Part shown: positions 44,544 through 62,856 of the stretch, piece by piece
How positions within the stretch are numbered: position 1 is the stretch's first letter
Layout: the number at the start of each line of letters is the position of its first letter
Assembly: GCF_001467825.1 (NCBI RefSeq)
Contig: NZ_LNYK01000026.1
Span: forward strand, 21,385-85,384
DNA: 64,000 nucleotides
Source: Legionella londiniensis
Lineage (GTDB): Bacteria > Pseudomonadota > Gammaproteobacteria > Legionellales > Legionellaceae
Direction: 5' to 3'
Program-made: the position numbers and the translations under genes
The notes under the pieces: generated by a model
Database searches by the model: none
The model's input: the letters and a program-made list of their open reading frames with translations, nothing else
Told to the model about the DNA's origin: nothing

Positions 44544-44570
44544 CTTGTCACCGAATATCCGTATCCGTTA

Positions 44571-45911
44571 TTACCTAATAGCATAACCCCCCGCTAAATC
44601 CTGATAAAGCTGCACCAGCGAAAGGGCGAGCTGCAATTTGGCCTGATTGGTTTCCAGCGCGAGCTTGTCCAAATAAATTTTGTTTTCTAGCAACATCTTA
44701 TAAGAAATTAATCCTGTTTTGAACAATCCTTCCTGCAACTTATACTGATAAGCATAATCCGCTTCAGCTTTTTGCTTTTCTTGAAAAAACGCACGCATAC
44801 GGCGATTGGCTGATAAATCATTATCCACTTCGTTTAAGATACGATGAACTGCTTTCATGTACTCTGCCATGCGCGCAGCAAGCAACCCCTTTCGTGCAGT
44901 AATTGTACCGAAGGTTGCAGGATCTATAATTTCATGCAGATAACTGTCCGTCACCTCAGCAAGCTTGCTTTCAGGAAGATGCGCCTCACCAATAAATTCA
45001 TCAAGCTGCAAACTTGGGAAAAAATCGGCAAAGGCCATAGAAACCCCGGCATGCGCTTTTTTAATGGCAAATTCTCTCATTCTTAAATCCGGCCGGTTGC
45101 GAAGCACCGCAGCAGGCAAACTGCCAGGCTTAAACCGGGTCAAGTCAATAGCAGTAAAATTGTTCCGTGTTTTAATGTTTCCGGGATTTTGGTTCAGGAG
45201 AAAACGAAGGGCATTCTGGCTGACGATAATATTATGCTCTACCGGCTTGATAAGGGCTGAGACCGCCTTCTCATCCACAGAAATTTTTGCCAAATCAATA
45301 TTATTTTGCAAACCGATCCTAACATCTTCTTTCGTGAGATTAATGAGATCCATTAAATCCCTGTCCAGCTCGTTGAGTAATTTTAATTCTTCCTGCTGCG
45401 CCATCAGGGTAAAATAAGCAGCGGCTATTTGCCCGATGACCGTCAAACGAACCCCATCAATCATGGCGTGATAATACTCAACGTTGTAGCGAGCCTGCTT
45501 TTCGCGTTTAAAATGGCGGGCAATATTCATGGCATAAGATGGCCATACGCCATAAAATCCGCCAGGCACGCCAAGCGCTGGGTTTGTGGAATAGCCGGCA
45601 AATAACTCCAGTGATGGAATCCAGCCCAGTTTGACATGCTGCAGTTCGCCACGCGCTTCCTTTAAATTTGCCAAGGCAATGTGAATATCGGGATTATTTT
45701 GTAATCCCGCCGTTATCAGCTTATTCAGATCTGAATCTTCAAATTGCCGCCACCAGGCAAAACAAGGCAAATCGGATCTATCCTGAAGCGCCTGCTGGGC
45801 TGAAGGGAATTGGTCAGGGACAGCTGCCTCCGGAATCGGTGCGCTTTGGCGTGAAGCACAGCCCCAAAGAACGGTTAGAAGCAATAATAGGATACAGATT
45901 TTCTTTATCAT
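44571..45911 (-). CDS. Outer-membrane efflux lipoprotein (TolC/NodT family)
   Basis: 446 residues from the ATG at 45911; the frame opens 30 residues earlier but that part lacks a signal sequence, whereas MIKKICILLLLLTVLWGC is an ideal lipoprotein signal with the modified cysteine at 18. The mature protein shows the duplicated OMF coiled-coil plan (ALANLKEARGELQ, LRNRPDLRMREFAIKKA, the NodT block). First gene of the export operon with the HlyD-like adaptor and split FUSC pump. Substrates of FUSC pumps are often aromatic acids; here unknown. Confidence 0.88.
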   Translation of the reverse strand: MIKKICILLLLLTVLWGCASRQSAPIPEAAVPDQFPSAQQALQDRSDLPCFAWWRQFEDSDLNKLITAGLQNNPDIHIALANLKEARGELQHVKLGWIPSLELFAGYSTNPALGVPGGFYGVWPSYAMNIARHFKREKQARYNVEYYHAMIDGVRLTVIGQIAAAYFTLMAQQEELKLLNELDRDLMDLINLTKEDVRIGLQNNIDLAKISVDEKAVSALIKPVEHNIIVSQNALRFLLNQNPGNIKTRNNFTAIDLTRFKPGSLPAAVLRNRPDLRMREFAIKKAHAGVSMAFADFFPSLQLDEFIGEAHLPESKLAEVTDSYLHEIIDPATFGTITARKGLLAARMAEYMKAVHRILNEVDNDLSANRRMRAFFQEKQKAEADYAYQYKLQEGLFKTGLISYKMLLENKIYLDKLALETNQAKLQLALSLVQLYQDLAGGYAIR

Positions 45912-46067
45912 AGATAATGGGCTGCAATAATCATTTGCGTGATATGGGAAAAGCCCTGCGTCAAAGAAAATCATCGCACAAAAATCATAGGAATGTAACA
46001 AATGGAATCCCTAAGAAAGACATTCCATTAAAATAAGCTACCGATGAAATTGTAAATACAAAGGTTG

Positions 46068-47291
46068 TTATCTAGGGGCAATTGCATATTTATTTTGATA
46101 TTTGTCCATAAATCCCAGAACCACAAAGCCCAGGACTCCTATCAATAATGTAATTGGAATAACACTCATCCCATAAGAAAATGCGTGCTCTGCATTTGCA
46201 CCGCCAGAAGCGTTAATGACATAGCCTATGGTGCTATGAAAGGCATAGCCAAAACTCATGATAATTGTGTTGGCAACAGCTATGGTCAGTCCTGCGATAT
46301 TTTCTTCAACGTAAGTTGACGCTTTATAGATGGCAATAATTTGATAAGCACAACACACCCCAATTAGAATAAAATTTACGGCAATACTGCTTATCGAAAG
46401 CTTTCCTGCCACCAGCAGCGTGAAAATGATAAACATTGTGCTTGCTGCGGCAATAATGGTTCCTATGTAATATCCAGATTTTTCTGCAATAAGGCTTAAA
46501 GCCGACGACCCCAAACACATCCCGACAAATATTAATGAAGGAAAGTAACTGGCAGAAGCAGCATCGATACCATAAATGTGTTTTAAGAAAGCAGAACCCC
46601 ATACATCGGCAAAACCTTCTAAAGGGCCAACCATCATGCCAGCCGAGACACAAAGCAATAACACTTTTCTGTTTGTAAAGACGGCCTTTAAATCCGAGAG
46701 CACTGTGCTTTGGTGGTCAGACGGCATATCAGGGACAATGAAAAAGTTGATGCCTGCGAGCATCAATCCTATTGCAGCAAACACCAATACAACAGTTTGA
46801 TAGCCCCACAGATGAACCATATAATTCACAGGACCGCCCCCATAAATGGCGCCTATTAGGCCAATGGTTACGGAAAACCCCAACATCCTCGTAAAACGTT
46901 CTTCCCTGAAAAGCATGCGGATGATTTTGAACACGCCAAGGATAGCCGCAGAAGACCCGATGCCGATTAAGGCGCGTCCCATGACGGGGTATATCCAATT
47001 TTTGGCAAAGATAATGGGCATCAAACCAATAACCGTAAGCAAAATGCATACTGTCATGACTTTTCTGGGGCCAAGACGGTCAATCAAAATCCCAAGCGGT
47101 AAATGCATTAGGGAATAGCCAATATAATAAATCCCGGAAAATTGCCCAAAAACGGCGGGATCCATAGAGAATTGCTGCATGAGATCATTCAGCATAACAT
47201 TGGGCATAACCCTTAATATATACTGATAGGCATAGAAAATTGATGCCAGCAGCCAAATAAACCACACTACCCTTTTTGAATTGATCATCAT
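46068..47291 (-). CDS. Major facilitator superfamily transporter
   Basis: 407 residues with 12 predicted membrane helices and the loop-2 motif GILIDRLGPRK. The start WLLASIFYAYQYILRVMPNVML and the absence of a sugar signature resemble the MFS groups that Legionella uses for amino acids or nucleosides (Pht-like); this is suggestive only. A separate gene, with a 156-base gap to the start of the efflux operon. Confidence 0.85.
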   Translation of the reverse strand: MMINSKRVVWFIWLLASIFYAYQYILRVMPNVMLNDLMQQFSMDPAVFGQFSGIYYIGYSLMHLPLGILIDRLGPRKVMTVCILLTVIGLMPIIFAKNWIYPVMGRALIGIGSSAAILGVFKIIRMLFREERFTRMLGFSVTIGLIGAIYGGGPVNYMVHLWGYQTVVLVFAAIGLMLAGINFFIVPDMPSDHQSTVLSDLKAVFTNRKVLLLCVSAGMMVGPLEGFADVWGSAFLKHIYGIDAASASYFPSLIFVGMCLGSSALSLIAEKSGYYIGTIIAAASTMFIIFTLLVAGKLSISSIAVNFILIGVCCAYQIIAIYKASTYVEENIAGLTIAVANTIIMSFGYAFHSTIGYVINASGGANAEHAFSYGMSVIPITLLIGVLGFVVLGFMDKYQNKYAIAPR

Positions 47292-48858: not shown

Positions 48859-49656
48859 ATGAGGCGAATAAGCCAGATGAGGATTGGAGGCAACGTGTCA
48901 TGGGATCCTGAGCGTTATGTGCATGGAAATTATATTCAAAATAAAATCAATGAGGCATTTTGCAAACGTTTAAATTTCAGATTATTTGGAAATATCCTGG
49001 ATATTGGCTCTGGTGATGGATTATTCACTAAGTTATTGGCGGATAACCTAAAAAGCGGCCAAATACTTGGTATCGACAGCTCGGAACCTATGGTAAAACA
49101 TGCAAGGCAGCATTGGGCCCGGAAGAATCTTTCCTTTGAGGTACAGCGCATCGAAGAACTCAAGCATACTCAGCCGTTTGATTTTATTCTCTCTTTCTGG
49201 TGCTTGCACTGGACTCCTATTGAATTGTCCTTCCCTAATATTTACCAGGCTTTAAAACCTGGAGGTAAAATGTATGCCGTCTTTTCTTCATTCTCCGACA
49301 ACAGCATTTTGCAAACCTGGCGTGAGTTGGCCAAACAGAATCGTTACCGTGATCTGACGGATAAATATATCAACTCAACAAACGAACAGTATTTTTTGCG
49401 TGTGGTTAATATCCTGAGCCATTTGCCGTTTAAGCAAGTCAAATTAAATTTGGAAACCGCAAGCGTGCCTCTTCCAACCCTTGATCATTTTAAGAATTTG
49501 CTCTTGACGATGCCGTTCATGCATACCTTTCCGGCAGAAATCCTAAACGATCTTATTAGAGATATGCAAGAAGCGCTGCAAGTCATTTGTCAGCGTAAAT
49601 ACGCCGGTAAACTTTATTATGAAACCCGCCCTATTTTCCTGGAGGCTGTTAAGTGA
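48859..49656 (+). CDS. SAM-dependent methyltransferase, trans-aconitate-methyltransferase/BioC-like
   Basis: 265 residues. SAM motif I is ILDIGSGDGLFT, followed by GIDSSEPMV and the FILSFWCLHWTP catalytic-region segment typical of methyltransferase_11/Tam-type enzymes that esterify carboxylates or modify small molecules. It ends 21 bases before the dioxygenase start and is the first clear enzyme of the polyketide operon. A tailoring role (O-methylation or carboxyl methylation of the product) is inferred from position. The ATG at 48859 lacks a ribosome site; the ATG at 48877 is an alternative. Confidence 0.75.
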   Translation: MRRISQMRIGGNVSWDPERYVHGNYIQNKINEAFCKRLNFRLFGNILDIGSGDGLFTKLLADNLKSGQILGIDSSEPMVKHARQHWARKNLSFEVQRIEELKHTQPFDFILSFWCLHWTPIELSFPNIYQALKPGGKMYAVFSSFSDNSILQTWRELAKQNRYRDLTDKYINSTNEQYFLRVVNILSHLPFKQVKLNLETASVPLPTLDHFKNLLLTMPFMHTFPAEILNDLIRDMQEALQVICQRKYAGKLYYETRPIFLEAVK

Positions 49657-49677
49657 TTGCATTTTAAGGCGATAAGC

Positions 49678-50718
49678 ATGAAGTTAAATATCGTAACAGA
49701 GCCAAGCACCAATATACCTATGGTCACCGCTTCTTCTGAACGGGAGGCGCCCCCTGCATCTTTATTGGAACTATTAACCCTGTATCATGCCGAACTTATG
49801 GCTGAGCTCCACCAGAAAGGCGCTATTTTATTCAGGGGATTTGGCTGTCTTGATGCAGATCATTTCTCTCAAGCGGTAGAATTATGCGGGCTTGGCGAAA
49901 GATGCAGTACCAGAGACTATGATTTGCCAAGAACCTTGCTGGCGAATGATATATATACCTCGTGCGATCTGCCTTCCCACATCCCTTTACCACTTCACCA
50001 TGAAAAACCAAGATCGAAAAACCCGCCAACCCATATCTATTTTTGCTGCATTACTCCGCCAGCAAAAGGCGGCGGAACCATTTTTGCGAATGCTTTGGAT
50101 ATTTGGCTTAACATGCCGAGAGAAATTCAGAAAAAAATCATAAAGCACGGCGTCTTGTACCAGCAGTTTTTTCATGGGAAATCACTCAAGTATCATTGGC
50201 TAAAAAAGATTTTAGGCCAACACTGCGCCCAAGGCTGGCCTGATTATTTCGGCACAACGGATAAAACAACCGTAGAAAAAAGGCTCATGCAAGACGAGGT
50301 TACCTGGGAATGGGTCAACCCCTGCCATGATTTGATCCTCTCAAGCTATTTACCGGGGGTCTTGCACCATCCCTTGAGCAATCAGATGGCCTGGTTTAAC
50401 TCTTCTGCTTACCTGAATTACTACTCAAATATGATTTATAACGGCTTAAAAGCTTCACACTTTTGGAAATATGCAGCTTACCGCTATCTTATCTTGAAAG
50501 ATATGTTCCCTATAGTATGCCATTATGGTGATGGCCAAGCTTTTTCGCCTGGCGAGGTCAAAGAAATTAATCGGGTTATTGAGAATCATGCTTGTGTTTT
50601 AAATTGGCAAAAGGGAGATTTTATGATAGTGGATAACTTTACCTTTATGCATGGAAAAGAAGCTCATCAGGGCGAGCGGTTATTGTATTCTTGTATGACT
50701 GCATTGCATACACCATAA
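49678..50718 (+). CDS. TauD/SyrP-like Fe(II)/2-oxoglutarate-dependent oxygenase
   Basis: 346 residues from ATG 49678, chosen for its AAGGCG ribosome site over an upstream TTG. The iron facial triad is His107-x-Glu109 (PLHHEKPRS) and distal His325 (FMHGKEAHQG), with Arg334 to hold 2-oxoglutarate. The ligand spacing and the AILFRGF N-terminal block are those of the TauD/TfdA family, and such enzymes in natural-product operons (SyrP) hydroxylate carrier-bound amino or hydroxy acids. It lies 21 bases after the methyltransferase and 33 before the synthase. Glu instead of Asp in HxE is tolerated in SyrP-type members. Confidence 0.82.
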   Translation: MKLNIVTEPSTNIPMVTASSEREAPPASLLELLTLYHAELMAELHQKGAILFRGFGCLDADHFSQAVELCGLGERCSTRDYDLPRTLLANDIYTSCDLPSHIPLPLHHEKPRSKNPPTHIYFCCITPPAKGGGTIFANALDIWLNMPREIQKKIIKHGVLYQQFFHGKSLKYHWLKKILGQHCAQGWPDYFGTTDKTTVEKRLMQDEVTWEWVNPCHDLILSSYLPGVLHHPLSNQMAWFNSSAYLNYYSNMIYNGLKASHFWKYAAYRYLILKDMFPIVCHYGDGQAFSPGEVKEINRVIENHACVLNWQKGDFMIVDNFTFMHGKEAHQGERLLYSCMTALHTP

Positions 50719-50751: not shown

Positions 50752-53700
50752 GTGGCCCACGAAAATCAAAGAAATCATATTGAAGGTATTCTCAATGAAC
50801 CCCTTGCCATCATCGGGATGAATTGCCAGTTCCCAGGAATCGATGCCGATGTTGAAGATGTGCAGGCATTTTATGAACTGTTGTTGAGTAGGCAGTCGCC
50901 AATTAAGGAAGTGCCAAGGAGCCGATGGGATATTGAAAAATATTATGATGCTGATAGAAAAAAGGCTGGTAAAATCATTAGCCGCCACGGAGGATTTTTA
51001 AATAATCCAGAGTTATTTGATGCCGCTTTTTTTAAGCTGTCATCCGCAGAAACAAAACAAATCGATCCCCAGCAGCGTTTATTTCTGGAAGTGTCCATTC
51101 GCGCTTTAAACCACGCCAACATCACTCTTGATTCATTAAAAGATACTAATACTGGGGTATATTGCGGAATTTCAACTCATGAATACAGCCAACTCAAGTA
51201 TAAAGACAATGTAAAATTTAATGCCTACACCCCTATAGGAATTGCTAACAGCGCTGCAGCAGGAAGACTGAGTCATGTATTAAATTTAAAAGGTCCAAGC
51301 ATGGCTGTTGACACGGGATGCTCTTCCTCCTTTTCCGCTCTTTATCTTGCAGCCACCGCGCTCAGGATCCACCAATGCAATATGGCGATTGTTGGGGGAG
51401 TTCATCTTAGTCTTTGTCCTGAAAGCTTTATGGGCTTAACCAAAGCAAACATGCTCTCCGCCTCGGGTAAATGCCGAAGCTTTGATGCCAAAGCAGACGG
51501 TTTTGTTCGCAGCGAAGGCTGCGGGGTGATTATTGTCAAACGGCTGCAGGACGCAATAGAGGCTGACGACAAGATCCATGCGGTTATTAAAAGTATTGTC
51601 ATGAACCAAAATGGCGACGGGACAGGCTTAATGGTGCCTGACATCGAAGCCCAGATCGCGATGCATCAAGCTGCATTGGCACAAGCGAACCTGGCTGCCG
51701 GCGACATTGATTACATTGAAACGCATGGAACCGGAACTGCTGTTGGCGATCCGGTGGAATTTCAGGCAATTCAATGCGTCCACCTGGGCCATCATCGCCA
51801 AGATAAGCCGCTGATTATAGGCGCATTAAAAAGTAACATCGGCCACACCATCTCTTCCTCCGGCATTGCCTCACTTATCAAAGCAGTTTGCGCCTTCAGA
51901 TATGAAACAATCGCGCCGAACTTGCACTACACAACACCCAATAACATGATTGAGCCAGACAGCATACCCGCGCTGATTGCAACTGAAAGTGTCCCCTTTC
52001 AGCACCATCCAGGGAAAAAAAGATACGCGCAAGTATCCAATTTCAGTTTCAGTGGAACCAATATCAGTGTTGTGATAGAGGAACCGCCCAAGCAGATAAA
52101 ACAATACCCTGAGGCAGAACATGGAAAGCCCTATTGTTTTGTGGCTTCTGCCCATAGCGAGCGTTCATTGCGGCAAATGCTGACAAACTATGTCCAATTT
52201 CTAAGGGAGTCGGCCGCAAGCCTTCATGATGTGTGCTGTACTTTAATCAATTGCCGCGATCATTATCAGTTCCGCCTGGCAATCATCGTCCGCGACAAGG
52301 AAACATTAATTAAACAAATTGAATCTGAAGAGTATGAAATAAAAAAAACCATCGTACACCATGAAAGCATAACCCTGGCAAATGATGCCCAACAAATTTA
52401 TGACGCTTATTTAAAAGGATTGAAGCCAAGGCTAAATCCAATTCAGTATCAAAAAATAGACTTGCCACTTTATTATTTTGACAGAAAACCTTATTGGCAT
52501 GAACCCAGAAACCGCGACGCTGACAGCCACTGGCTAAATAGCTTGTATTGTTCTTCCAAAGAAGGACAGATAGAAACCATCAAGGGAAAAATCGCACCCC
52601 TTATTCAGGAGATTGTCGAGAAAGAACCGATAGATGAACATCAAGACTTTGAATCATTGGGCTTTACCGAACCCTTGTTGGACGACCTTTATCAGGCGCT
52701 TTTGGGACTGTTCCCATCACGGCTCAAGATTCCAAATTCGCTGTTATCACCTTATTTAACTCTAGATAAGCTGGCGAGGCATTTGCAGCAAATCATCATG
52801 CCGCCCGCTGTCCATCGCCAACCTTCCATAAAGGTTCTGAATATCGAACCGATTGCCATTGTGGGCATGAGCTGCCGCCTGCCCCGGGCAGCGAATGTCG
52901 ACGAATTTTTATCCTTGCTGGTGCATGGCGAAAGCGGCATGGTCGATATTCCGCCGGAACGATGGGATAATGATCAATATTATGATCCTGATGCCAATGC
53001 ATTAGGCCGGCTTTATATCAAGCAACTGGGCTTAATTGATCATGTTAAAGCCTTTGACGCGGATTTCTTCAATATTTCCCCTCGCGAAGCCAAACTCATG
53101 GCTCCCCAATTACGGGTATTTATGGAGGAAAGCTATCACGCACTCGAAGATGCAAATTTACCCCTTGACATCATCAAGGACAGCAATACGGGAGTATTCG
53201 TTGGCGTTGGAACAAATGAATATCCAGGCGCCCTGGCAGCGCTTGGCGTCAGTTTAGAAGAATTAAATATCTACTTTGCGACAGGAAACGTTCTCAATGC
53301 CTTGGCGGGGCGCGTGGCCTATGCATTTGATTTTCATGGACCAATCCAGGCAATTGATACTGCCTGTTCATCTTCCATGACTGCCATTCATAATGCCTGC
53401 TTAAGTTTGCAGTCTGGCGAGTGCGATATGGCTCTTGCCGGCGGCGTCAATATCTTACTCACCCCCTATTCAAATATTACGCTGTCGAAAGCCAAAATGT
53501 TATCGCCTGAAAGCCGGTGCAAAACATTCAGCGAGGATGCCGACGGCTATGCCAGATCCGAAGGGTGCGGTGTGGTGGTATTAAAGCGTTTAAGTACGGC
53601 CATTCAAGATGAAGATGATATTCTCGCTATTATCAAGGGGTCTTCTATCAATAGTGATGGGAAAAGCGGCGGATTCACCGTTCCCAATGGGATTGCCCAA

Positions 53701-56700
53701 GAAGAAGTGATACGCAGTTCGCTTGCAAAATCAGGGCTATCTCCAAAAGATATCGATTATATTGAAACGCACGGCACGGGCACGCCGCTTGCTGATCCCA
53801 TAGAAGTCAACGCGTTAACCAGGATTTTCAGTGAACACCATAGCCCCGAGAAGCCGCTTTATATCAGCTCGGTAAAAACCAATATAGGCCATAGCGAAAG
53901 CGCTTCAGGTGTGGCAAGCCTCCTCAAGGCAGTGTTAAGCATAAAAACACAAAAAATTTTCAAGCATTTGAATTTCAAAAAGCTAAATCCCGCAATTGAA
54001 CTAAAAAATACCGCCATCCCATTGCAAACAATAGATTGGCATAAGCCTAATGGACCAAGATGCGCGGGCGTCAGTTCATTTGGGTTCAGCGGGGCAAATG
54101 CGCATATCATCCTGCAAGAAGCCCCCCGCAAAAAGCAAGAAGGCCGTACCTTGCCAAAAGAATCCCTATTGCTCATATCGGCAAAAAATAAAACCTCCCT
54201 TGAATTGCTGTTATCCAGTTATCAAACCTATTTATCCCTGACAGAACATGAGTTTGCCGATATCTGTTTTACTGCAGCAACCTGCCGGAGCCATTTTTTA
54301 TTCCGCGTGGTCATTAAAGCCAACTCGGCAAGAGAGGCCGCAGCCTTGATTGCTAAAAAGGAATATCAAATTCATCAAATTCAAAAGGAACAAGAGTTCT
54401 GCCAAAAACCAGGTACCTTGGAACAAATGCAGGTTGCATATCAGGAAGGCCATAAAGTAAATTGGCGAGAGTGTTATCAGTCACTGGGTTATCAATTTCT
54501 CAAGGTTAAATTGCCGCTATATGAGTTCACCCGTACAGAGCATTGGTATGGCCATAAAGATAAGTTGAAAGATGCGCTGCCTCCCAAAGATTGGTGTTTC
54601 CAATTGCAATGGGAACAGCAGGCATATGACAACACTCATCGTAAAACACAAGGCGGGCATTGGCTCCTGGTTGGCAACCCGCAAAAGGCTTCTGATTTTG
54701 GCAAGGAAGGGTTGCATATTCTCCAGGAAGAGGATGATTATTCATTCAATGCATTAGCCGGCATTATTTTTGCCGCGCCATTAGAAACTTGCCGCAACGA
54801 TATTCATTCCCAAAAGGAAATATTAAAAACGCTCCTCAACCTGATTAAAAAGATTAAAAAGCAAAACAGGAAAGAAGCTGATTTACGGCTGGTTGTGTTG
54901 ACCGCAAACGGCATACCGGAGCTTGCTGGGGATAATTTAAATTTAAGCCATAGCTCCCTTACCGGATTTTGCAAAACCCTTGCCCTGGAGTTGCCGCAAT
55001 ATTCCACCATTTTGATAGACTTGGAAAATCCTGACGATAAACAATATGCAGCACAAGTAGTTGCAGAAATTGAGCACAATCAGGGGGCGCATTATGAACA
55101 CCTGGTGGCGTATCGTAAGGGCAAACGCTATGTTCCGCGTTTAAAAAGAGTTGCGTTGGAAGACGGCAGGCGCTCGTTGCACAATGCTGGCCGTTACCTC
55201 ATTACCGGAGGCTCTGGAGGGCTTGGGCTCGTCACTGCACAAGCTTTGTTATCGGCTGGGGCAAAAGAGCTGATTCTTACTGCAAGGCATATAGACAAAC
55301 CCGAGATAAAAAAAGCGATTCAAAAAATTCAATCCTTTTATCCAGGCCGCACAGTCCGCATGGTCAGCCTGGATGTAACGGATAAGGAAGGGCTGCGCGC
55401 ATTTCTAGCAGAGATAAACGCAGATGGACTTCTCAAGGGAATTATTCATGCCGCCGGCGCTGCAGTTAAAGCGCCTTTGCTGGAGCATCGGGAGGAGGAT
55501 GTAGACTATGTATTTTCTGCCAAAGTCCAGGGCGGATGGAACCTGCATGAGCTAACTCAACACTGTGATCTGGATTTTTTTATCGTTTATTCGTCCATTG
55601 CTTCAGTATTTGGGAGCAACAAAGAATCAGTATACGGTGCTGCCAATGGCTTTCTGGATGCTTTGATTGCCGAAAGGCAACGCCTGGGCCTCGTCGGTAC
55701 CGCCATTCAATGGGGGCCATGGGGAGAAGTTGGCATGGCCCAGAACCGGTCTCGCAACCAAAACCTAAAAAAAGCCTTAATTGCTAACGACCAGGGCTAT
55801 ACGCTCATTAAGATGCTTCTCAATAGCCGGCTAAGCCATGCAGCCATTATTTCGCCGGACTACCTCAAATTCATGCTTGATTTTGTACCAAAGCCCAGGC
55901 CTCTTTTCCATGAGCATTTGGCAAAAGATCTGGCTGACAACATACCCGAAGTCAATCCACTGTTGTCACCGTGGCTAAGCAGTTATCTCCGAATTGATTC
56001 TGATAAACGCCTTAAGGCCTGCAAGGACATGCTGGGCAAGATTTGCAAAGAGATACTGGAGCTCGCGGATGCTGAAGATATTAATGAAGACACCGGCTTT
56101 TTTGAGCTTGGTTTTGATTCTTTGATGATAACGGAAATGGCAGCCCGGCTTAAGAAAGAGCTTGAGCCATACCTTAAGGTGACGGTGAGTATTGGCTTTG
56201 ATTATCCATCGATTGATAAATTAGCAAGATTCATAGAATCTGAGCTGAATCATCATTTGATTAAACAACAGGTTTCCAACTCTTCTGAGGCATGTGATGA
56301 TTCCATTGCTATTGTTGGCATGAGCTGCTCTTTGCCGAATGCGCCTGATGTGGCGGCATTTGAACGCCTGCTCGAACAAGGGCTAAGCGGCATTCAAGAT
56401 ATTCCTCTGGAACGTTGGGATAATCGCAAATACTATGATCCAAATATCAATGCGCCTCTGAAATCCTATGTAAACAAACTTGGATTGATAGAAAACATCA
56501 AATGTTTTGACGCCCATTTTTTTGGGATAAGCCCTCGTGAAGCCAAATTGATAGAGCCCCAACAACGGATTTTTTTGGAATGCTGTTATAAAGCCCTGGA
56601 AAATGCCAATTATCCTGCAAATGCATTGCGCGGCAGCCTGACAGGCGTATTCGCCGGTGTTGGTCCCAATGAATACTATGGCCTGCTCGAAAAAATGGGG

Positions 56701-59700
56701 TTCTCAAATGAGGAGCTTAGCGCCTATTCCATAACCGGCAATGTATTAAACCTCATACCGGGACGGGTAGCGTATACTTTTGATTTGAAAGGACCGTCAA
56801 TTAGTGTCGATACTGCCTGTTCTTCTTCCCTTGTGGCCATTCATTATGCGTGCCAAAGCTTGAAAAACCGGGAAATTGATTATGCTTTGGCGGGCGGCGT
56901 GAATATACTGCTCTTGCCGGAATCCAATATAACCTTATGCAAGGCCCGCGCCTTGTCACCGGATGGGCAATGCAAAACCTTCGATGAAAAAGCCGATGGT
57001 TATGTGAGAGCAGAAGGCTGCGGCGTGCTATTCCTTAAAAGAACATCGGATGCCTTGCGCGATAAAGATCATATTCTTGCCGTCATTAAAGCGTCTGCTG
57101 TCAATAATGACGGCCAGTCTGCCGGGTTAACCGTGCCGAATGGCAAAAGCCAGGAGGAAGTGATGCTGAAAGCCTTGGCGCAGAGTGATCTGGCTTCTTG
57201 CGATGTTGGTTATATTGAGGCGCATGGCACAGGAACGGCCTTGGGCGATCCAATAGAAGTTCATGCCATCAATAAAATCTATGGGGAATCGCGCGACCGT
57301 GACAATCCTTTATATATTGGCACGGTTAAAACAAATATTGGCCACCTTGAAAGCGCGGCTGGTGTTGCCGGCGTGATTAAAACCGTGATTGGGATACAAA
57401 ATAAGAAAATTTACAAAAATTTAAATTTTAACCGCTTAAACCCAAATATAAAATTAAATGGCACACGCATCGCTTTACAAAATATAGATTGGCATCATGG
57501 CTCAAAGCCCCTGTGCGCGGGTGTCAATGCATTTGGATTCAGCGGCACCAATGCGCATGTCATTTTGCAGGAATTTCCAGCTAACCAAAGCGCGACCTCA
57601 ATCAGGGCGTTTAAAAAGCATTTGCTGGTTTTATCCGCAAAATCCAGGACTGCCTTAACCAATTTAGCTAACCGTTATCAACAATATTTAGCAACCACTC
57701 CACATCATTTTGCTGACATCTGCTTTACGGCGGCGACCTGCCGGGAACATTATCCCCATCGCCTTGCGGTGATGGCAGCGAGCGCTGAAGAGGCCAGCCG
57801 CTTGCTCAGCAGCGGGCAATTTGTCGAATCAGCCAAAGAAAATCACAGACTTGATATCCAGGATATTGCGCTTAAATCGTTATTGCTGGCCTACCTCAGG
57901 GGCGAAGAGGTCAATTGGGCTTCTTACTATAAAACCCGCGGGGATGAATTTAAAAAAATTTTGTTACCGAATTATACATTTGACCGCCATGAATATTGGC
58001 TGGACAAAAAAAGCAGTGGGAATGTCTTTCCAAACGCGGTGCATCCCCTCTTGGGGCAAATGATTTCCCTGCCGAACAATGAGTATTTATTTCACCAAAA
58101 ACTGGACTTGGAAAATTTAAGCTATATCAACCAGCATAGCGTATTTGAAAAAATGGTTTTTCCAGCAACAGCTTATATCGAGTGTGGTTTGGCCGTGGCT
58201 GGATTAATCTTTAAGGGGAGCGCCTGCACAATAGAAAAATTCACAATTGAGCGCCCCTTCTTCCCAAAGCAAGACCAGGAGTTCCAATTACAGGCAAAAC
58301 CCCAAAATGACGGGCTATACCAAATCAATATTTTTGCCAGGGAAGATATCAGTTGGCAACGATTTTCTTCAATGGAGATTAAGCCGCAAACCACGCCAAA
58401 GACTGAAACCCTGGATTTGGATGCGCTTAAATCCGAATGCATTGAGAAAATAGATGTATCAGAAATTTATGAAGATTTCAGGAAACGATCATTGTTTTAT
58501 GGCGATGAGTTTCATGTTTTACAAGAAGGGTATGTGCAGGTTAACCAGGTTTTGGCTAAGGTAGGATCAACCAAAGCCAACTATGGTTCTGAATATTACT
58601 TTCATCCCATTCTCCTGGATGGCGCGATGCAAAGCCTGCTGTTACTCGCTACCCGTCATGCCGATACTGCCACCTACGTGCCCTATGCCATAAAAAACAT
58701 GACGACTTACCAGGAAGCCCCAAGAAATATTTGGGTGCACTTAACCAAGCGCGCAACAAAGCATGAAAATGAACTTGGCGTCGATATAAAACTGTATGAT
58801 AACTCGGGCTTGTTGATAGGCGAAATTGAGGAACTGAAATTAAGAGCCGTCACAAGAAAGCATTTTGCCTCATATGAACCGGGGATTCAGCATCTTTACA
58901 GCATCAAATGGCAGCCTCTTGATTCAATCTTGCAAGCTAATCCTGTAATCCCTGAGCTTTGGGTTGTGGCCAAGGATGAAGTGAAAGCTGAAAAAGCATT
59001 AGGACATATGAATTATCAACTTATTAAGGATATGACCCAATTCACCAATATCAAAGATAAACACATCGTCTTTCTCCATGATCAAGAGTTTTCAGACTTG
59101 TTTCATTGCTGCCAAACCATGTTTAAGTCAAGCCCCCGCAGTTTTATCTTTGTTACTGAAAATGCTTATGCCGTGCGCGAGGGTGAACCGGTTAACCCTT
59201 ACCATACAATGGCCAGCTCTTTCTGGAAAAGTTTTAGCAATGAGCTTGAGCTTAACAAAAATTACACAGTCGATCTGGGCCCGAATGAGACTCTGGCCAA
59301 GCCACTAACTTATATATTCAGTACTGATGATCCAGAAAATCAACTGGCTGTTCGCGATTCAATCTACGTACCAAGACTTAAGAAAACAAAGCTGCCAGTT
59401 TCAAATGTACAAGAAGAGCCTTTGTTCGATGCTCATGCGACTTACCTCATTACCGGCGGTACTGGAGGGTTAGGCAAGGCATTAATTAAATATCTCACGC
59501 GAAGAGGAGCAAAACATCTGGTCATTACCAGCCGCTCTGAGTGCCCGGAAGATATCAAGATATTGATTAAACATGAAAAACAAAACCAGGCCTTTATCAC
59601 CCATTATAAAGTTGATGCCTCCCATTATCAGCATATGGAACAGCTTATCGCGGACATTCAAAGCATAAGACCCTTAAAAGGCGTATTCCATCTTGCAGGC

Positions 59701-62001
59701 CTTGTTCGTGATGGATTGATTGTGAATTTAAATGATGAAGACATGCAAAGCGTATTCAGCGCAAAAATGGAAAGCGCCTTAATTCTGCATCAACTAACCA
59801 AACACCTTCACCTCGATGTATTTGTCTTATTTTCATCTACAGCTTCGCTGCTGGGAGCCAGAGGGCAGGCAAATTATGCTGCTGCCAATGGATTTTTAGA
59901 CGGATTGGCACATTTTCGCCAGCAGCAAGGCTTGCCGGCTTTAACCATCAACTGGGGACCTTTCCATGAAACCGGGATGACTACAAACCTTACGCAAATC
60001 CTGAAGCAGCGCGGATTTATGCCGCTTAACAAAGATAACCTTGAGATTCTCGATGTTTTATTGAAAACCCAGTTACCCCAAATTGCGTTATGCCCTGTTG
60101 CCTGGGATACCTATTTTAACTATTCGCCAAAACAGGCATGGCTGTCTGAACTGGCTCATCACAAAATTCAAGCGCAGCAGCATTTTTTAAATTCCTTAAA
60201 GTTGCGAACCCGGGAAGAAAAAATTGCAATACTGAGCCAGACCTTATGTGAGATTGCAGCAGATGTGTTGGGGTTAGACGATACAGCGCAAATCACAGCC
60301 AAAGATAATTTATTCTCAATGGGCATGGATTCCTTGATGGCCATAGACATCAGAAACAGGATTCATGATAAATTACAATGTGAAGCGCTAAGCCTGTCAA
60401 TCGAGTATTTTATTAATTCTCCAAGCATTGCAAAAATTGCAAGAAATATCGCGGATGAAATCCAAACCCTCTTTGCCGCAGGAACCAGCAATAATCTGCC
60501 ATTTGCAGAACCGGATGAAGAAATACCTTTATGTGATTTCCAGTATATATTTTGGGTGCTCAACAAGTTTCAATATAGTTTTAATATCGGCATGCAAGTT
60601 CAATTACACGGCAAACTCAATCAGGATTATTTATTTCAGGCTTTTAATTTTGTTATTCATCAAAACAAAGCCTTCTGGATTTATTTCAACCACAAGACTC
60701 CCACGCAGCGGTTAAGACAAGAAGGCCAATTCAAGTTACTCTACAAAGATATTTCTTTAAGCCATGAAATCAAAAGCCTCAATGATGAATTCCACAGCAA
60801 CACCATGCGCGTCATTCCTTTGAATGAGCAGCCGTTGATTCGCGTGTATCTTTATAAAATGAACCATGAATTGCATGAGCTGCACATGATTATCCCGCAT
60901 ATTATTGTGGATGATGTCTCATGTGAAATTGTATTCAGTCAATTTAAAACATGTTATGAAGCTCTCGTATTGGGGAAAAAACTAACAGGCGAACCAATAG
61001 CGAATTTGTATTTCCGCTATGTAAAACAAAGCAATCATTATTATGAGAAAAATCTGCAAGAAAAAATCGGCTTTTGGCAGAAATACAATCATGGCTTTCA
61101 AATGTTAAGTTTCGGCGCCAAACATCATTTGCCCGATGCTGCAAGACAAGTAAAACATTTATTCCATTATACCCTTGAGCCGTTGGCGATCGAAAAATTA
61201 ATCAATTGGCATAGGGAAAAAAATCTTAACGTTAGCTCAGGATTAATCGCTGCTTGCCAGATTGTTTTTTACAAGATAAGCCGCCAAAATAAAATTCCAA
61301 TTATTCTGATTCACAGCGGCCGTGAAAGGAGTGAATACAAATCAGTAGTAGGTTTATTCTCAGAATATAAGAGAATCAATATTACTTTAAGCGAACAATA
61401 TCAATTTATTGATTGCATCCAATCTATTGAAGAACAGCTGACTAAAACTGCCCCTTACCAAAAATGTTCCCATTTCATCCGAGATGCCGGGTTGAAAGGC
61501 TCGAGGGTAACAATTGGCCAATACCTGACAACTCAGTTGAATAAGCTCCTTCTTACCAGGAATTTTAAAGAAAAAAAGGTCAATGCAATACTAACTGACT
61601 TCTACATAAAATACCTAAGCCAGATAGCCGCCATCAGACGAAGTATTTCAATTAAATTTAAGCTGAATCAATTATTCAACTGGAACCTTTGCCTGCAGAA
61701 ACCGGACAGATTACGGACTCTTATCAGCATTACGCCAAGCTTTTTTACCAAGGAAATTCAGAATCAGCGTTTTGCCAATCTCAATTATTCATTTCCGGAT
61801 CATTTTGCCTCTGCAAACCGTCCTATCGGCAACCAAACGCTATGGATTTACTTTTCAAAAAATCAACATGGCGAGTATCAGCTTTCAATCAATGGGCCAT
61901 TGACTACTGAGTGTAAAAATCTTATCGCATCTGAGTTTAGCAGGATTATTTCTGCGGTAGTCGAAAATGACGGGCAATGCATCAATAACTTATTAGAGTG
62001 A
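50752..62001 (+). CDS. Hybrid polyketide synthase-NRPS: KS-ACP(inactive)-KS-KR-ACP-KS-DH-KR-ACP-C, no acyltransferase
   Basis: 3749 residues, GTG start with TAGGAGC. Domains: KS1 17-445 (Cys190 in DTGCSSS, His325, His365); an ACP-like fold 608-680 where the phosphopantetheine Ser is Glu640; KS2 700-1127 (Cys872); KR 1480-1660 (GGSGGLG, YGAANGF); ACP with Ser1790; KS3 1851-2279 (Cys2023); DH 2431-2715 (His2462, Asp2623); KR 2895-3075 (GGTGGLG, NYAAANGF); ACP with Ser3194; C-terminal condensation domain 3257-3749 (PHIIVDD, catalytic His3383). The KS-AT and post-AT linkers are kept next to each other (for example EFADICFTAATCRSHF then KVNWRECYQ) with no acyltransferase GHSxGE block between, so extenders must be loaded in trans. 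No thioesterase; release by the C domain is inferred. Neighbours are methyltransferase, oxygenase and VOC genes. Confidence 0.93.
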   Translation: MAHENQRNHIEGILNEPLAIIGMNCQFPGIDADVEDVQAFYELLLSRQSPIKEVPRSRWDIEKYYDADRKKAGKIISRHGGFLNNPELFDAAFFKLSSAETKQIDPQQRLFLEVSIRALNHANITLDSLKDTNTGVYCGISTHEYSQLKYKDNVKFNAYTPIGIANSAAAGRLSHVLNLKGPSMAVDTGCSSSFSALYLAATALRIHQCNMAIVGGVHLSLCPESFMGLTKANMLSASGKCRSFDAKADGFVRSEGCGVIIVKRLQDAIEADDKIHAVIKSIVMNQNGDGTGLMVPDIEAQIAMHQAALAQANLAAGDIDYIETHGTGTAVGDPVEFQAIQCVHLGHHRQDKPLIIGALKSNIGHTISSSGIASLIKAVCAFRYETIAPNLHYTTPNNMIEPDSIPALIATESVPFQHHPGKKRYAQVSNFSFSGTNISVVIEEPPKQIKQYPEAEHGKPYCFVASAHSERSLRQMLTNYVQFLRESAASLHDVCCTLINCRDHYQFRLAIIVRDKETLIKQIESEEYEIKKTIVHHESITLANDAQQIYDAYLKGLKPRLNPIQYQKIDLPLYYFDRKPYWHEPRNRDADSHWLNSLYCSSKEGQIETIKGKIAPLIQEIVEKEPIDEHQDFESLGFTEPLLDDLYQALLGLFPSRLKIPNSLLSPYLTLDKLARHLQQIIMPPAVHRQPSIKVLNIEPIAIVGMSCRLPRAANVDEFLSLLVHGESGMVDIPPERWDNDQYYDPDANALGRLYIKQLGLIDHVKAFDADFFNISPREAKLMAPQLRVFMEESYHALEDANLPLDIIKDSNTGVFVGVGTNEYPGALAALGVSLEELNIYFATGNVLNALAGRVAYAFDFHGPIQAIDTACSSSMTAIHNACLSLQSGECDMALAGGVNILLTPYSNITLSKAKMLSPESRCKTFSEDADGYARSEGCGVVVLKRLSTAIQDEDDILAIIKGSSINSDGKSGGFTVPNGIAQEEVIRSSLAKSGLSPKDIDYIETHGTGTPLADPIEVNALTRIFSEHHSPEKPLYISSVKTNIGHSESASGVASLLKAVLSIKTQKIFKHLNFKKLNPAIELKNTAIPLQTIDWHKPNGPRCAGVSSFGFSGANAHIILQEAPRKKQEGRTLPKESLLLISAKNKTSLELLLSSYQTYLSLTEHEFADICFTAATCRSHFLFRVVIKANSAREAAALIAKKEYQIHQIQKEQEFCQKPGTLEQMQVAYQEGHKVNWRECYQSLGYQFLKVKLPLYEFTRTEHWYGHKDKLKDALPPKDWCFQLQWEQQAYDNTHRKTQGGHWLLVGNPQKASDFGKEGLHILQEEDDYSFNALAGIIFAAPLETCRNDIHSQKEILKTLLNLIKKIKKQNRKEADLRLVVLTANGIPELAGDNLNLSHSSLTGFCKTLALELPQYSTILIDLENPDDKQYAAQVVAEIEHNQGAHYEHLVAYRKGKRYVPRLKRVALEDGRRSLHNAGRYLITGGSGGLGLVTAQALLSAGAKELILTARHIDKPEIKKAIQKIQSFYPGRTVRMVSLDVTDKEGLRAFLAEINADGLLKGIIHAAGAAVKAPLLEHREEDVDYVFSAKVQGGWNLHELTQHCDLDFFIVYSSIASVFGSNKESVYGAANGFLDALIAERQRLGLVGTAIQWGPWGEVGMAQNRSRNQNLKKALIANDQGYTLIKMLLNSRLSHAAIISPDYLKFMLDFVPKPRPLFHEHLAKDLADNIPEVNPLLSPWLSSYLRIDSDKRLKACKDMLGKICKEILELADAEDINEDTGFFELGFDSLMITEMAARLKKELEPYLKVTVSIGFDYPSIDKLARFIESELNHHLIKQQVSNSSEACDDSIAIVGMSCSLPNAPDVAAFERLLEQGLSGIQDIPLERWDNRKYYDPNINAPLKSYVNKLGLIENIKCFDAHFFGISPREAKLIEPQQRIFLECCYKALENANYPANALRGSLTGVFAGVGPNEYYGLLEKMGFSNEELSAYSITGNVLNLIPGRVAYTFDLKGPSISVDTACSSSLVAIHYACQSLKNREIDYALAGGVNILLLPESNITLCKARALSPDGQCKTFDEKADGYVRAEGCGVLFLKRTSDALRDKDHILAVIKASAVNNDGQSAGLTVPNGKSQEEVMLKALAQSDLASCDVGYIEAHGTGTALGDPIEVHAINKIYGESRDRDNPLYIGTVKTNIGHLESAAGVAGVIKTVIGIQNKKIYKNLNFNRLNPNIKLNGTRIALQNIDWHHGSKPLCAGVNAFGFSGTNAHVILQEFPANQSATSIRAFKKHLLVLSAKSRTALTNLANRYQQYLATTPHHFADICFTAATCREHYPHRLAVMAASAEEASRLLSSGQFVESAKENHRLDIQDIALKSLLLAYLRGEEVNWASYYKTRGDEFKKILLPNYTFDRHEYWLDKKSSGNVFPNAVHPLLGQMISLPNNEYLFHQKLDLENLSYINQHSVFEKMVFPATAYIECGLAVAGLIFKGSACTIEKFTIERPFFPKQDQEFQLQAKPQNDGLYQINIFAREDISWQRFSSMEIKPQTTPKTETLDLDALKSECIEKIDVSEIYEDFRKRSLFYGDEFHVLQEGYVQVNQVLAKVGSTKANYGSEYYFHPILLDGAMQSLLLLATRHADTATYVPYAIKNMTTYQEAPRNIWVHLTKRATKHENELGVDIKLYDNSGLLIGEIEELKLRAVTRKHFASYEPGIQHLYSIKWQPLDSILQANPVIPELWVVAKDEVKAEKALGHMNYQLIKDMTQFTNIKDKHIVFLHDQEFSDLFHCCQTMFKSSPRSFIFVTENAYAVREGEPVNPYHTMASSFWKSFSNELELNKNYTVDLGPNETLAKPLTYIFSTDDPENQLAVRDSIYVPRLKKTKLPVSNVQEEPLFDAHATYLITGGTGGLGKALIKYLTRRGAKHLVITSRSECPEDIKILIKHEKQNQAFITHYKVDASHYQHMEQLIADIQSIRPLKGVFHLAGLVRDGLIVNLNDEDMQSVFSAKMESALILHQLTKHLHLDVFVLFSSTASLLGARGQANYAAANGFLDGLAHFRQQQGLPALTINWGPFHETGMTTNLTQILKQRGFMPLNKDNLEILDVLLKTQLPQIALCPVAWDTYFNYSPKQAWLSELAHHKIQAQQHFLNSLKLRTREEKIAILSQTLCEIAADVLGLDDTAQITAKDNLFSMGMDSLMAIDIRNRIHDKLQCEALSLSIEYFINSPSIAKIARNIADEIQTLFAAGTSNNLPFAEPDEEIPLCDFQYIFWVLNKFQYSFNIGMQVQLHGKLNQDYLFQAFNFVIHQNKAFWIYFNHKTPTQRLRQEGQFKLLYKDISLSHEIKSLNDEFHSNTMRVIPLNEQPLIRVYLYKMNHELHELHMIIPHIIVDDVSCEIVFSQFKTCYEALVLGKKLTGEPIANLYFRYVKQSNHYYEKNLQEKIGFWQKYNHGFQMLSFGAKHHLPDAARQVKHLFHYTLEPLAIEKLINWHREKNLNVSSGLIAACQIVFYKISRQNKIPIILIHSGRERSEYKSVVGLFSEYKRINITLSEQYQFIDCIQSIEEQLTKTAPYQKCSHFIRDAGLKGSRVTIGQYLTTQLNKLLLTRNFKEKKVNAILTDFYIKYLSQIAAIRRSISIKFKLNQLFNWNLCLQKPDRLRTLISITPSFFTKEIQNQRFANLNYSFPDHFASANRPIGNQTLWIYFSKNQHGEYQLSINGPLTTECKNLIASEFSRIISAVVENDGQCINNLLE

Positions 62002-62061
62002 ATTTTGGACATCATAAAATATGCTAATCTAATAGGAAATATGCTTAACAAGGAAAACCTG

Positions 62062-62439
62062 ATGGCCAATGGAATCCCTAAAACAGGAGAAATAGGCTGG
62101 AATCGCTTGATGACCGATGATATTGAGAAAGCCAAAGCTTTTTATCAAGATGTTTTTGGCTGGGAAACTTTTGAAGTGGATCTGGAAGGAGCGCCCTATT
62201 TTATCTTCAAATTAGGCGCTAAAAAAATCGCAGGCCTCATGCAATTACCCCAACAGTGGCAAGCGCCGCCTCATTGGATGAGTTTTATAGCGGTAGAGAA
62301 TATCGAGAACACCATTAACGAAGCCAGGCGTCTTGGTGCGGAGTTGATAATAGAGCCTAAAATCATCACCGGTCTCGGATTAGTAGCCCTTTTTAAGGAT
62401 CCAACAGGTGCTGTTGCAGGCCTTTATCAACCATTCTGA
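62062..62439 (+). CDS. VOC/glyoxalase-fold protein, first of a tandem pair
   Basis: 125 residues starting at ATG 62062 with AAGGAAAACC upstream; an earlier TTG is not supported. The fold shows two beta-alpha-beta-beta-beta modules: GEIGWNRLMTDDIEKAKAFYQDVFGWE and WMSFIAVENIENTINEARRLGAE. The C-terminal DPTGAVAGLYQP is characteristic of YycE/Glo_EDI-type VOC members. It follows the synthase stop by 60 bases. Whether it binds metal or acts on the polyketide is unknown; VOC proteins often bind or sequester small molecules for resistance. Confidence 0.85.
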   Translation: MANGIPKTGEIGWNRLMTDDIEKAKAFYQDVFGWETFEVDLEGAPYFIFKLGAKKIAGLMQLPQQWQAPPHWMSFIAVENIENTINEARRLGAELIIEPKIITGLGLVALFKDPTGAVAGLYQPF

Positions 62440-62457: not shown

Positions 62458-62856
62458 ATGACCGATAAAGCCCGGAATGCAGGAGAAATAGGATGGAACC
62501 GATTATTAACTGTGGATGTTGAACAAGCCAAGGATTTTTATCATCAGTTATTTGGCTGGGAAACCATTGAAGTAGAACTTGATGGAATAACTTACTTCAT
62601 ATTCAAATTAGGCAACAAAAATATTGCCGGTTTAATGTGGCTGCCTCCAGCATGGCAAGCACAAGATCCAAGGATAAGCCCCCATTGGATGAGTTACATC
62701 ACGGTAGAAAACATCCAGGAAGCGGTATCCAAAGCCGTGCGCCATGGAGCCAAACTGGTAGTAGCGGCAAAAACCATTCAGAATTTAGGAATGATTGCCA
62801 TGCTTCAAGACCCAACCGGTGCTTATATCGGATTATTTCAGCCAATCTTGGGCTAA
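62458..62856 (+). CDS. VOC/glyoxalase-fold protein, second of a tandem pair
   Basis: 132 residues, ATG with GAGGGAGAACC upstream. It is plainly a paralogue of the gene 19 bases upstream, sharing GEIGWNRL, AKxFYxxxFGWET, KIAGLM-type, PHWMS and DPTGA blocks, with an insertion of about five residues (WQAQDPRISPHW). A recent tandem duplication is likely. The pair closes the + strand run that starts at the methyltransferase; resistance to or binding of the product is one idea. Confidence 0.85.
   Translation: MTDKARNAGEIGWNRLLTVDVEQAKDFYHQLFGWETIEVELDGITYFIFKLGNKNIAGLMWLPPAWQAQDPRISPHWMSYITVENIQEAVSKAVRHGAKLVVAAKTIQNLGMIAMLQDPTGAYIGLFQPILG

What the first reader, a model, noticed from the sequence alone, without database searches (positions are those of the whole stretch)
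50752..62001. Acyltransferase-less PKS ending in a condensation domain, with no thioesterase
The 3749-residue synthase has three ketosynthases but no acyltransferase, and a terminal NRPS condensation domain where a thioesterase would be expected. The two flanks of each missing acyltransferase are still there, joined directly, which looks like acyltransferase loss from a cis-AT ancestor instead of descent from classic trans-AT lines. The likely product is a short chain (one ketoreduced step, one reduced and dehydrated step) condensed to an amine or alcohol. Known: PKS domain logic. Inference: release chemistry and product.
Basis: partly seen in the sequence, partly recalled or inferred. Interest (0 to 1): 0.78.

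Follow-up and report, generated by a model that had tools for sequence, protein, structure and literature searches.

The report
Legionella polyketide synthase without acyltransferases
This Legionella gene encodes a large polyketide-making enzyme that lacks the parts that normally pick up its building blocks and ends in a condensation domain; it likely lost those parts and would borrow the cell's fatty-acid enzyme FabD instead, which makes a known gene family a good case for how such enzymes lose parts.

Summary
In detail: ORF 50752-62001 encodes 3749 aa with three ketosynthases (KS), no acyltransferase (AT), no thioesterase and a C-terminal condensation (C) domain. The window is Legionella. 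PKS-type relatives of the C-terminal region occur in 46 of 143 genomes of its family, and an L. pneumophila protein of 3780 aa is a full-length relative. A C-terminal C domain on the L. pneumophila PKS was already in print (PMC5126622). KS trees do support it: all three KSs fall among AT-carrying enzymes (100/98), and joining them to classic trans-AT KSs is rejected. Relatives show truncated or dead ATs; one protein has an intact, a dead, a partial and two missing ATs. The genome's only AT is FabD, so FabD is the likely malonyl loader. Product, starter and acceptor stay inferred.

The parts
50752..62001 (+). AT-less modular PKS, 3749 aa, KS1-(carrier without serine)-KS2-KR-ACP-KS3-DH-KR-ACP-C
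50800..52086 (+). KS1 (aa 17-445), Cys-His-His present
52087..52497 (+). KS1 C-terminal linker and post-AT motif LPLYYFDRKPYW, no AT between
52549..52821 (+). carrier-like stretch (about aa 600-690) without the phosphopantetheine serine (LGFTEP)
   Evidence: boundaries by eye
52846..54132 (+). KS2 (aa 699-1127), Cys-His-His present
54133..54546 (+). KS2 linker and post-AT motif LPLYEFTRTEHW, no AT between
55189..55731 (+). KR1 core (about aa 1480-1660): GGSGGL, YGAANGF
   Evidence: boundaries by eye
56038..56235 (+). ACP1 (aa 1763-1828), LGFDSL
56302..57588 (+). KS3 (aa 1851-2279), Cys-His-His present
57589..57999 (+). KS3 linker and post-AT motif LPNYTFDRHEYW, no AT between
58042..58863 (+). 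DH (aa 2431-2704): HSVFEKMVFP and DxxxQ
59437..59967 (+). KR2 (aa 2896-3072): GGTGGL, YAAANGF
60232..60441 (+). ACP2 (about aa 3161-3230), MGMDSL
   Evidence: boundaries by eye
60517..61998 (+). C-terminal condensation domain (from aa 3256), motif PHIIVDD at aa 3382-3388
48859..49656 (+). SAM methyltransferase directly upstream, likely tailoring gene
   Evidence: with the dioxygenase in 4 of 18 relative loci
49657..50718 (+). TauD-type Fe/2-oxoglutarate dioxygenase directly upstream, likely tailoring gene
   Evidence: 4 of 18 relative loci

Best explanation
It is an acyltransferase-less modular polyketide synthase of Legionella whose ketosynthases branch with acyltransferase-carrying (cis-AT) enzymes: it likely lost its built-in acyltransferases, is likely loaded with malonyl units by the fatty-acid enzyme FabD, and would release a short chain onto an amine or alcohol through its terminal condensation domain. 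Shown by sequence: the domain order, Cys-His-His in all three KSs, the cofactor and Tyr/Asn motifs of both KRs, the DH His and Asp, two carriers with a serine and one carrier-like domain without it, a C domain that keeps the second His and the Asp of HHxxxDG, and FabD as the only AT found in the genome. Inferred: the single PPTase arms the two carriers; FabD charges them with malonyl; KS1 takes a starter (perhaps from fatty-acid synthesis) and passes it on without an elongation of its own; KS2-KR-ACP makes a beta-hydroxyacyl chain; KS3-DH-KR-ACP makes an alpha,beta-unsaturated one; the C domain transfers it to an unknown nucleophile; the methyltransferase and the dioxygenase next door modify the product.
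For: No AT piece in P0001-P0099. One AT in the genome (completeness given as 100%): FabD, with GHSLGE, among plsX, fabH, fabG, acpP and fabF (gene names by sequence, not by a family search). Of 46 PKS-bearing family genomes, 40 were also in the AT search; 4 of 40 have a single AT (G000, G004, G049, G111), and in all 4 it is FabD beside fabH and fabG; G111 is one contig. The genome's only multi-KS frame is this one. FabD was shown to load an AT-less module in Pseudomonas and indicated for barnesin (PMC12828459, PMC13096860; passages). CurL, whose chain has room for an AT between KS and post-AT motif, is the best single-KS solved match of all three KSs: 435 bits against 343 for PksL (KS1), 492 against 376 (KS2), 504 against 389 (KS3). 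In an 85-KS tree all 9 Legionella KSs lie in a 54-row set with 16 of 17 intact cis-AT KSs, CurL and DEBS (100/98); a 422-KS tree agrees, with all 17 Legionella KSs, 22 of 24 cis-AT KSs and both PDB rows in one group (0.945). Held together with classic trans-AT KSs: p-AU 0.0129 (nine with 30), 0.00124 (KS2 and KS3, six with 29), 0.00122 (KS1, three with 29). KS2 and KS3 are sisters (100/99), the duplication pattern that PMC7930024 ascribes to cis-AT lines. Relatives show AT decay: KSs of P0122 (5 of 5), P0125 (4 of 4), P0129 (3 of 4) and P0174 (2 of 4) keep short AT remnants, and none of these four proteins has GxSxG[EQ]. P0123 has a full-length AT reading GHGEGE, a partial one, an intact one (GHSLGE) and two KSs with none; those two are sister to Legionella KS2/KS3 (99/93; 0.974), and its KS1 with the dead AT groups with Legionella KS1 (0.968). 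C motif PHxxx[DE] in 97 of 98 proteins; the 50 listed structure matches are C or C-like domains by title.
Against: 36 of the 40 counted genomes have two to seven ATs, so many relatives could use another enzyme. Nothing here tests FabD on these carriers. In a first FastTree run (237 KSs) KS1 fell next to the outgroup, outside both sides; its place within the cis side is unresolved, and the branch that unites it with P0123_KS1 was seen only after more proteins were added. The side of 29 trans-AT KSs has modest support (93/78), the classic trans-AT label rests on absent ATs and on names such as PksN, and the groups of all three AU tests were set after a tree had been seen. The C-domain model is poor (pLDDT 60.5, TM-scores about 0.3), and the first His of HHxxxDG is Pro in 97 of 98 proteins. 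Tailoring genes differ between relatives.
Confidence: 0.68

Rival explanations
1. A dedicated trans-AT encoded elsewhere loads the enzyme, as in classic trans-AT PKSs; FabD is not the loader.
For: 36 of 40 PKS-bearing genomes with counts have two or more ATs, and several genomes of the family show free-standing AT frames of about 280-294 aa that were not examined.
Against: The window's genome and three other PKS-bearing genomes, one of them a single contig, show only FabD. No AT was found in the fetched flanks of 18 relative loci, some of them short.
Confidence: 0.15
2. The KSs are of cis-AT type because KS-containing blocks were swapped into an AT-less line, not because ATs were lost in place.
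For: The tree shows only where the KSs belong; module-block exchange is described as common in trans-AT lines (PMC7930024, passages).
Against: KS2 and KS3 are sisters, as after module duplication, and related proteins have ATs at different stages of decay in the same position.
Confidence: 0.2
3. The C domain does not release the product to a free amine or alcohol but hands the chain to a carrier-bound partner on a separate NRPS, so the PKS is the first half of a hybrid line.
For: C domains normally act on two carrier-bound substrates (general knowledge); the genome has a 1529-aa frame with a weak match to the C-terminal region at C14 (23% identity), NRPS-like by inference.
Against: None of the 10 flanking proteins scanned (41727-62856) has an adenylation or condensation domain, and the C14 frame is on another contig.
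Confidence: 0.25
4. The gene is an idle or decaying remnant.
For: One carrier lacks its serine, and the copy in G003 is split into two frames.
Against: The frame is open over 3749 codons; in 63 three-KS proteins Cys-His-His is kept in 61 KS1, 63 KS2 and 63 KS3; two carriers keep the serine motif.
Confidence: 0.05

Closest known systems
PKS cluster I of L. pneumophila (Tobias et al. 2016, PMC5126622; figure legend read)
   Same: C-terminal condensation domain on a PKS. P0003 from L. pneumophila (62% identity over the C-terminal region) has the same domain order and no AT. That P0003 is cluster I is inferred.
   Different: The parts read name neither a cis-AT origin, nor FabD as loader, nor the carrier without serine.
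Terminal C domains of trans-AT PKSs: lasonolide, palmerolide, basiliskamide, phormidolide (PMC9600693, PMC8739492; passages)
   Same: C domain in place of a thioesterase, proposed to release the chain.
   Different: Those are long macrolide-type lines; here only two elongation modules look complete and the KSs are of cis-AT type.
FabD-dependent modules PipC (PMC12828459) and BrnF (PMC13096860); passages
   Same: AT-less module in a genome where FabD is the AT candidate.
   Different: Single PKS modules in NRPS hybrids with a TE named in the passages; FabD was tested there, not here.
CurL-type cis-AT module (PDB 4mz0)
   Same: Best single-KS solved match for all three KSs.
   Different: CurL keeps its AT.
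Algal PKSs with AT displaced in trans (PMC4661987; passages)
   Same: AT loss from integrated lines inferred from KS phylogeny.
   Different: Eukaryotic giant PKSs; no decay intermediates in the passages read.
Hybrid trans-AT KS subclass (NaPDoS2, PMC9582728; passages)
   Same: AT-less KSs that clade with cis-AT KSs.
   Different: That subclass groups with hybrid cis-AT KSs; here no NRPS module precedes the KSs.

Membership tests
trans-AT PKS (functional sense: AT supplied in trans) | no AT in any module | tested here: met
trans-AT PKS (functional sense: AT supplied in trans) | a free AT exists that can load the carriers | tested here: inconclusive
   FabD is the only AT found in the genome; loading not testable here
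classic trans-AT PKS lineage | KSs fall in the trans-AT KS clades | tested here: not met
   AU tests; transATor reference clades were not available
classic trans-AT PKS lineage | dedicated AT gene in the cluster | tested here: not met
   one AT in the genome, among fab genes; none in the fetched flanks of 18 relative loci
cis-AT modular PKS | AT inside each module | tested here: not met
cis-AT modular PKS | KSs branch with cis-AT KSs | tested here: met
   100/98; 0.945; the first FastTree run left KS1 outside
NRPS condensation domain | Pfam Condensation above cut-off | tested here: met
   123.2 bits against 30.6
NRPS condensation domain | HHxxxDG active-site motif | tested here: inconclusive
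   second His and Asp/Glu kept in 97 of 98 proteins, first His is Pro
PKS released by a terminal C domain | C domain is last and no TE is present | tested here: met
PKS released by a terminal C domain | C domain shown to release the chain | not testable with these tools
   needs enzymology

The most novel reading that the evidence does not exclude
Legionella and its nearest PKS relatives record a separate birth of trans-AT polyketide synthases: a CurL-like cis-AT line eroded its acyltransferases in place, first the catalytic serine, then the fold, once the housekeeping FabD took over loading. P0123 (one intact, one dead, one partial and two missing ATs in one protein, with KS1 next to Legionella KS1 and KS3/KS5 next to Legionella KS2/KS3) and P0122/P0125/P0129 (truncated ATs) are the intermediates, and the Legionella enzyme is the finished state.
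Probability: 0.45. Interest if true: 0.68.

Novelty: new variant of a known kind. Interest (0 to 1): 0.5.

Why it matters
How AT-less assembly lines arise is mostly argued from trees in which the two kinds are already far apart. Here the AT-less enzyme sits among AT-carrying kin with ATs at several stages of decay, and some host genomes show a single AT, FabD. That makes a cis-to-trans change and the takeover by a fatty-acid enzyme directly testable. It also gives a whole Legionella gene family, one member of which may be the PKS tied to lysosome avoidance (cited in PMC5126622, original not read), a concrete product hypothesis: a short acyl chain joined to an amine or alcohol.

Tried and rejected
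Flanks as proof of AT loss: rejected. AT-less P0156 and PDB 7zma keep the same post-AT motif.

KS1 as a dead KS: a pattern search seemed to show lost His residues in KS1 of some relatives; an alignment showed Cys-His-His in 61 of 63, so the idea was dropped.

AU tests (p 3e-09 and 2e-05) are not relied on: their trans-AT set of 27 KSs is not one clade by itself, which inflates the difference. No test of the trans-AT sets of 29 and 30 alone was run as a control.

Label caveats: of 22 KSs labelled ATdecayed I rely on 16 (P0122 five, P0125 four, P0129 three, P0174 two, P0123 two). P0145_KS4 is cut by the protein end, P0178_KS1 keeps a serine (GTSMGE), and P0138_KS1, P0159_KS3, P0162_KS3 and P0167_KS1 score only 11-21 bits. 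'Dead' means without the serine, not shown inactive. Rows dropped: 12 of 57 proteins (P0122-P0178) taken as near-duplicates by eye, and all but 7 of the Legionella-type proteins, before the 237-row tree; 85 of its rows were hand-picked. The 38 proteins of the KS1 search (P0179-P0216) were left out there and added, where they moved KS1 from beside the outgroup into the cis-AT side. P0002 (the window itself) was left out of the 98-protein counts, which include P0001.

C-domain structure: a model from 17 sequences was weak; no second job was run. A hand-set pattern missed the C motif in 28 of 98 proteins, a looser one found it in 97. The domain orders printed come from such patterns and miss some domains.

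Gene number of the L. pneumophila PKS: one guess (lpg2186, recalled) found no paper; dropped. Paper searches; no title or abstract start listed there describes this PKS line as cis-AT derived. Of PMC5126622 I read the abstract, passages, section 11 part 1 of 2 and section 18; of PMC13096860, PMC12828459, PMC4661987, PMC7930024, PMC9600693, PMC8739492, PMC9582728, PMC6113372, PMC3250452 and PMC11828895 passages only; Shevchuk et al. 2014 not at all.

Full report
What is there. ORF 50752-62001 (+) is open over 3749 codons. Pfam and motif scans give KS1 (17-445), a carrier-like stretch with LGFTEP in place of LGxDSL (about 600-690), KS2 (699-1127), KR, ACP1 (LGFDSL), KS3 (1851-2279), DH (2431-2704), KR (2896-3072), ACP2 (MGMDSL) and a C domain from 3256. 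There is no AT, no G[HFY]SxG motif and no TE. An AT profile made from 17 intact ATs scores FabD at 169 bits and finds nothing in P0001-P0099.

Where it is. The closest named records are Legionella (18 Legionella or Legionellaceae loci among 24). The host genome G000 has 2.40 Mb in 34 contigs, completeness 100%. The C-terminal region has PKS-type matches (over 200 bits) in 46 of 143 genomes of its family; one, in G003, is split into two frames. The other 20 of the 66 genomes with a match show only weak ones (up to 102 bits, 22-28% identity), NRPS-like by inference. Within the genus the count at E 1e-10 is 3 of 7. Among 5.8 billion proteins, searched by shared words and by length, the C-terminal region finds 151 at E 1e-5, of which 120 are listed: P0002-P0099 without PF00698 (the named ones Legionella or Legionellales), then P0100-P0121, at most 25% identical, most with NRPS adenylation domains. 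P0003 is from L. pneumophila subsp. pneumophila and stands for 802 member sequences. Tobias et al. 2016 state in a figure legend that the L. [quoted passage not shown]). That P0003 is that PKS is inferred.

Loading. PF00698 has one match in G000: FabD, with GHSLGE, among plsX, fabH, fabG, acpP and fabF. PF01648 also has one match, in a 266-aa protein of Sfp-like size, which agrees with the single Sfp-like PPTase that PMC5126622 reports for its Legionella genomes. Of the 46 PKS-bearing genomes 40 were also in the AT search (134 genomes); 4 of 40 have one AT (G000, G004, G049, G111), and in the other three it is again FabD between fabH and fabG. The remaining 36 have two to seven, so FabD need not be the loader everywhere. 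KS matches in G000: three in this protein, FabF, three other single-KS frames and two weak ones. FabD loading of an AT-less module was measured in Pseudomonas (PMC12828459) and indicated for barnesin (PMC13096860) (passages). For the window it is inference.

Origin of the missing ATs. Each KS is followed after 123-126 aa by the post-AT motif. AT-less proteins on the classic trans-AT side have it too (P0156, 4 of 5 KSs at 154-158 aa), so the flanks do not decide. Solved relatives: CurL is the best single-KS match of KS1, KS2 and KS3, ahead of PksL (AT-less, recalled) by about 93 to 117 bits; 7zma scores higher in total, with two KS stretches summed (327.6 and 307.5 bits each for KS3). KS trees: a first FastTree with 237 KSs puts KS2 and KS3 in a 72-leaf group (0.83) with 16 of 17 intact cis-AT KSs, CurL and DEBS, but KS1 next to the FabF outgroup. 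With a mixture model, 85 hand-picked KSs and 1000 ultrafast bootstraps, all nine Legionella KSs fall in a 54-row set with 16 of 17 cis-AT KSs, CurL and DEBS (100/98), apart from 29 KSs taken as classic trans-AT (93/78). A FastTree of 422 KSs, with the 38 proteins of the KS1 search added, has all 17 Legionella KSs in a 102-leaf group (0.945) with 22 of 24 cis-AT KSs, CurL and DEBS, but also 39 AT-less KSs. AU tests reject holding the Legionella KSs with the trans-AT KSs: p 0.0129 for all nine with 30, 0.00124 for KS2 and KS3 with 29, 0.00122 for KS1 with 29. The groups were set after a tree had been seen.

Decay intermediates. In P0122 (5 of 5 KSs), P0125 (4 of 4) and P0129 (3 of 4), all without names, the KSs are followed by AT remnants of 45-97 matched profile positions of 319, and none of these proteins holds GxSxG[EQ]. 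P0174 is similar (2 of 4). P0123 has, in one protein, a full-length AT reading GHGEGE, a partial AT, an intact AT (GHSLGE) and two KSs with none. Those two are sister to Legionella KS2/KS3 (99/93; 0.974), and P0123_KS1, the one with the serine-less AT, groups with Legionella KS1 and P0208_KS1 (0.968). The simplest reading is AT loss within a cis-AT line. The trees cannot alone exclude block exchange.

KS1 and the carrier without serine. In 44 three-KS proteins over 3500 aa (the window's included) none has LGxDS between KS1 and KS2; 33 have 246-263 aa there and 11 only 151-169 aa, too short for a carrier beside the linker. KS1 keeps Cys-His-His in 61 of 63 three-KS proteins; the other two have Asn for one His. 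In 31 of 33 two-KS proteins the first KS is of KS1 type; P0034 and P0039 have it directly before a KR and an ACP, P0045 directly before the next KS. So KS1 is kept active but in the three-KS form has no carrier of its own; a loading or relay role is likely and untested.

C domain. Pfam gives 123 bits; the motif is PHxxx[DE] in 97 of 98 proteins, so the second His, the catalytic one in C domains (PMC8739492, passage), is kept and the first is Pro. A model from 17 sequences has pLDDT 60.5; the 50 listed PDB matches are C or C-like domains by title, one of them from the polyketide synthase MokA, with TM-scores about 0.3. By sequence the best solved matches are NRPS C domains (47 bits at most). 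Terminal C domains are proposed to release lasonolide and palmerolide (PMC9600693, PMC8739492; passages). The acceptor here is unknown.

Neighbours. A methyltransferase and a TauD dioxygenase sit directly upstream. The same pair is upstream in 4 of 18 relative loci. Five others have a methyltransferase with a Cupin_8/JmjC-like protein, and a Methyltransf_2-type gene family occurs in 8 of 18 (Pfam was run on one or two members of each family, and some flanks are short). Methylation and iron-dependent oxidation recur through different genes, which suggests tailoring of the product. The other 12 window neighbours tested had no match in these loci.

Judgement. The gene is a member of a widespread, already reported Legionella PKS family. 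New here, as far as the searches named go, are the cis-AT placement with decay intermediates, the single-AT genomes pointing to FabD, and the serine-less carrier behind a KS1 that keeps its active site. Interest 0.5.

Noticed in passing
   Followed up: no
P0123 (6132 aa, unnamed contig): One PKS protein with an intact, a serine-less, a partial and two missing ATs; possible transitional form.
   Followed up: partly
genomes, e.g. G060, G062, G072: Free-standing AT frames of about 285-294 aa, over 1 Mb from the PKS on the same contig; whether they are FabD or a further AT was not examined.
   Followed up: no
window 62005-62439 and 62458-62856 (+): Two adjacent small glyoxalase-superfamily proteins just downstream of the PKS, with no match in the 18 relative loci.
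   Followed up: partly
window 41727-47291 (-): Divergent export-like set upstream (FUSC, HlyD, outer-membrane efflux protein, MFS), with no match in the 18 relative loci.
   Followed up: partly
G000:C1:197072-199128: Two adjacent single-KS frames of about 430 aa, possibly a type II pair.
   Followed up: no
P0008, P0045: Relatives in which KS1 and KS2 are joined with no carrier-like stretch.
   Followed up: partly
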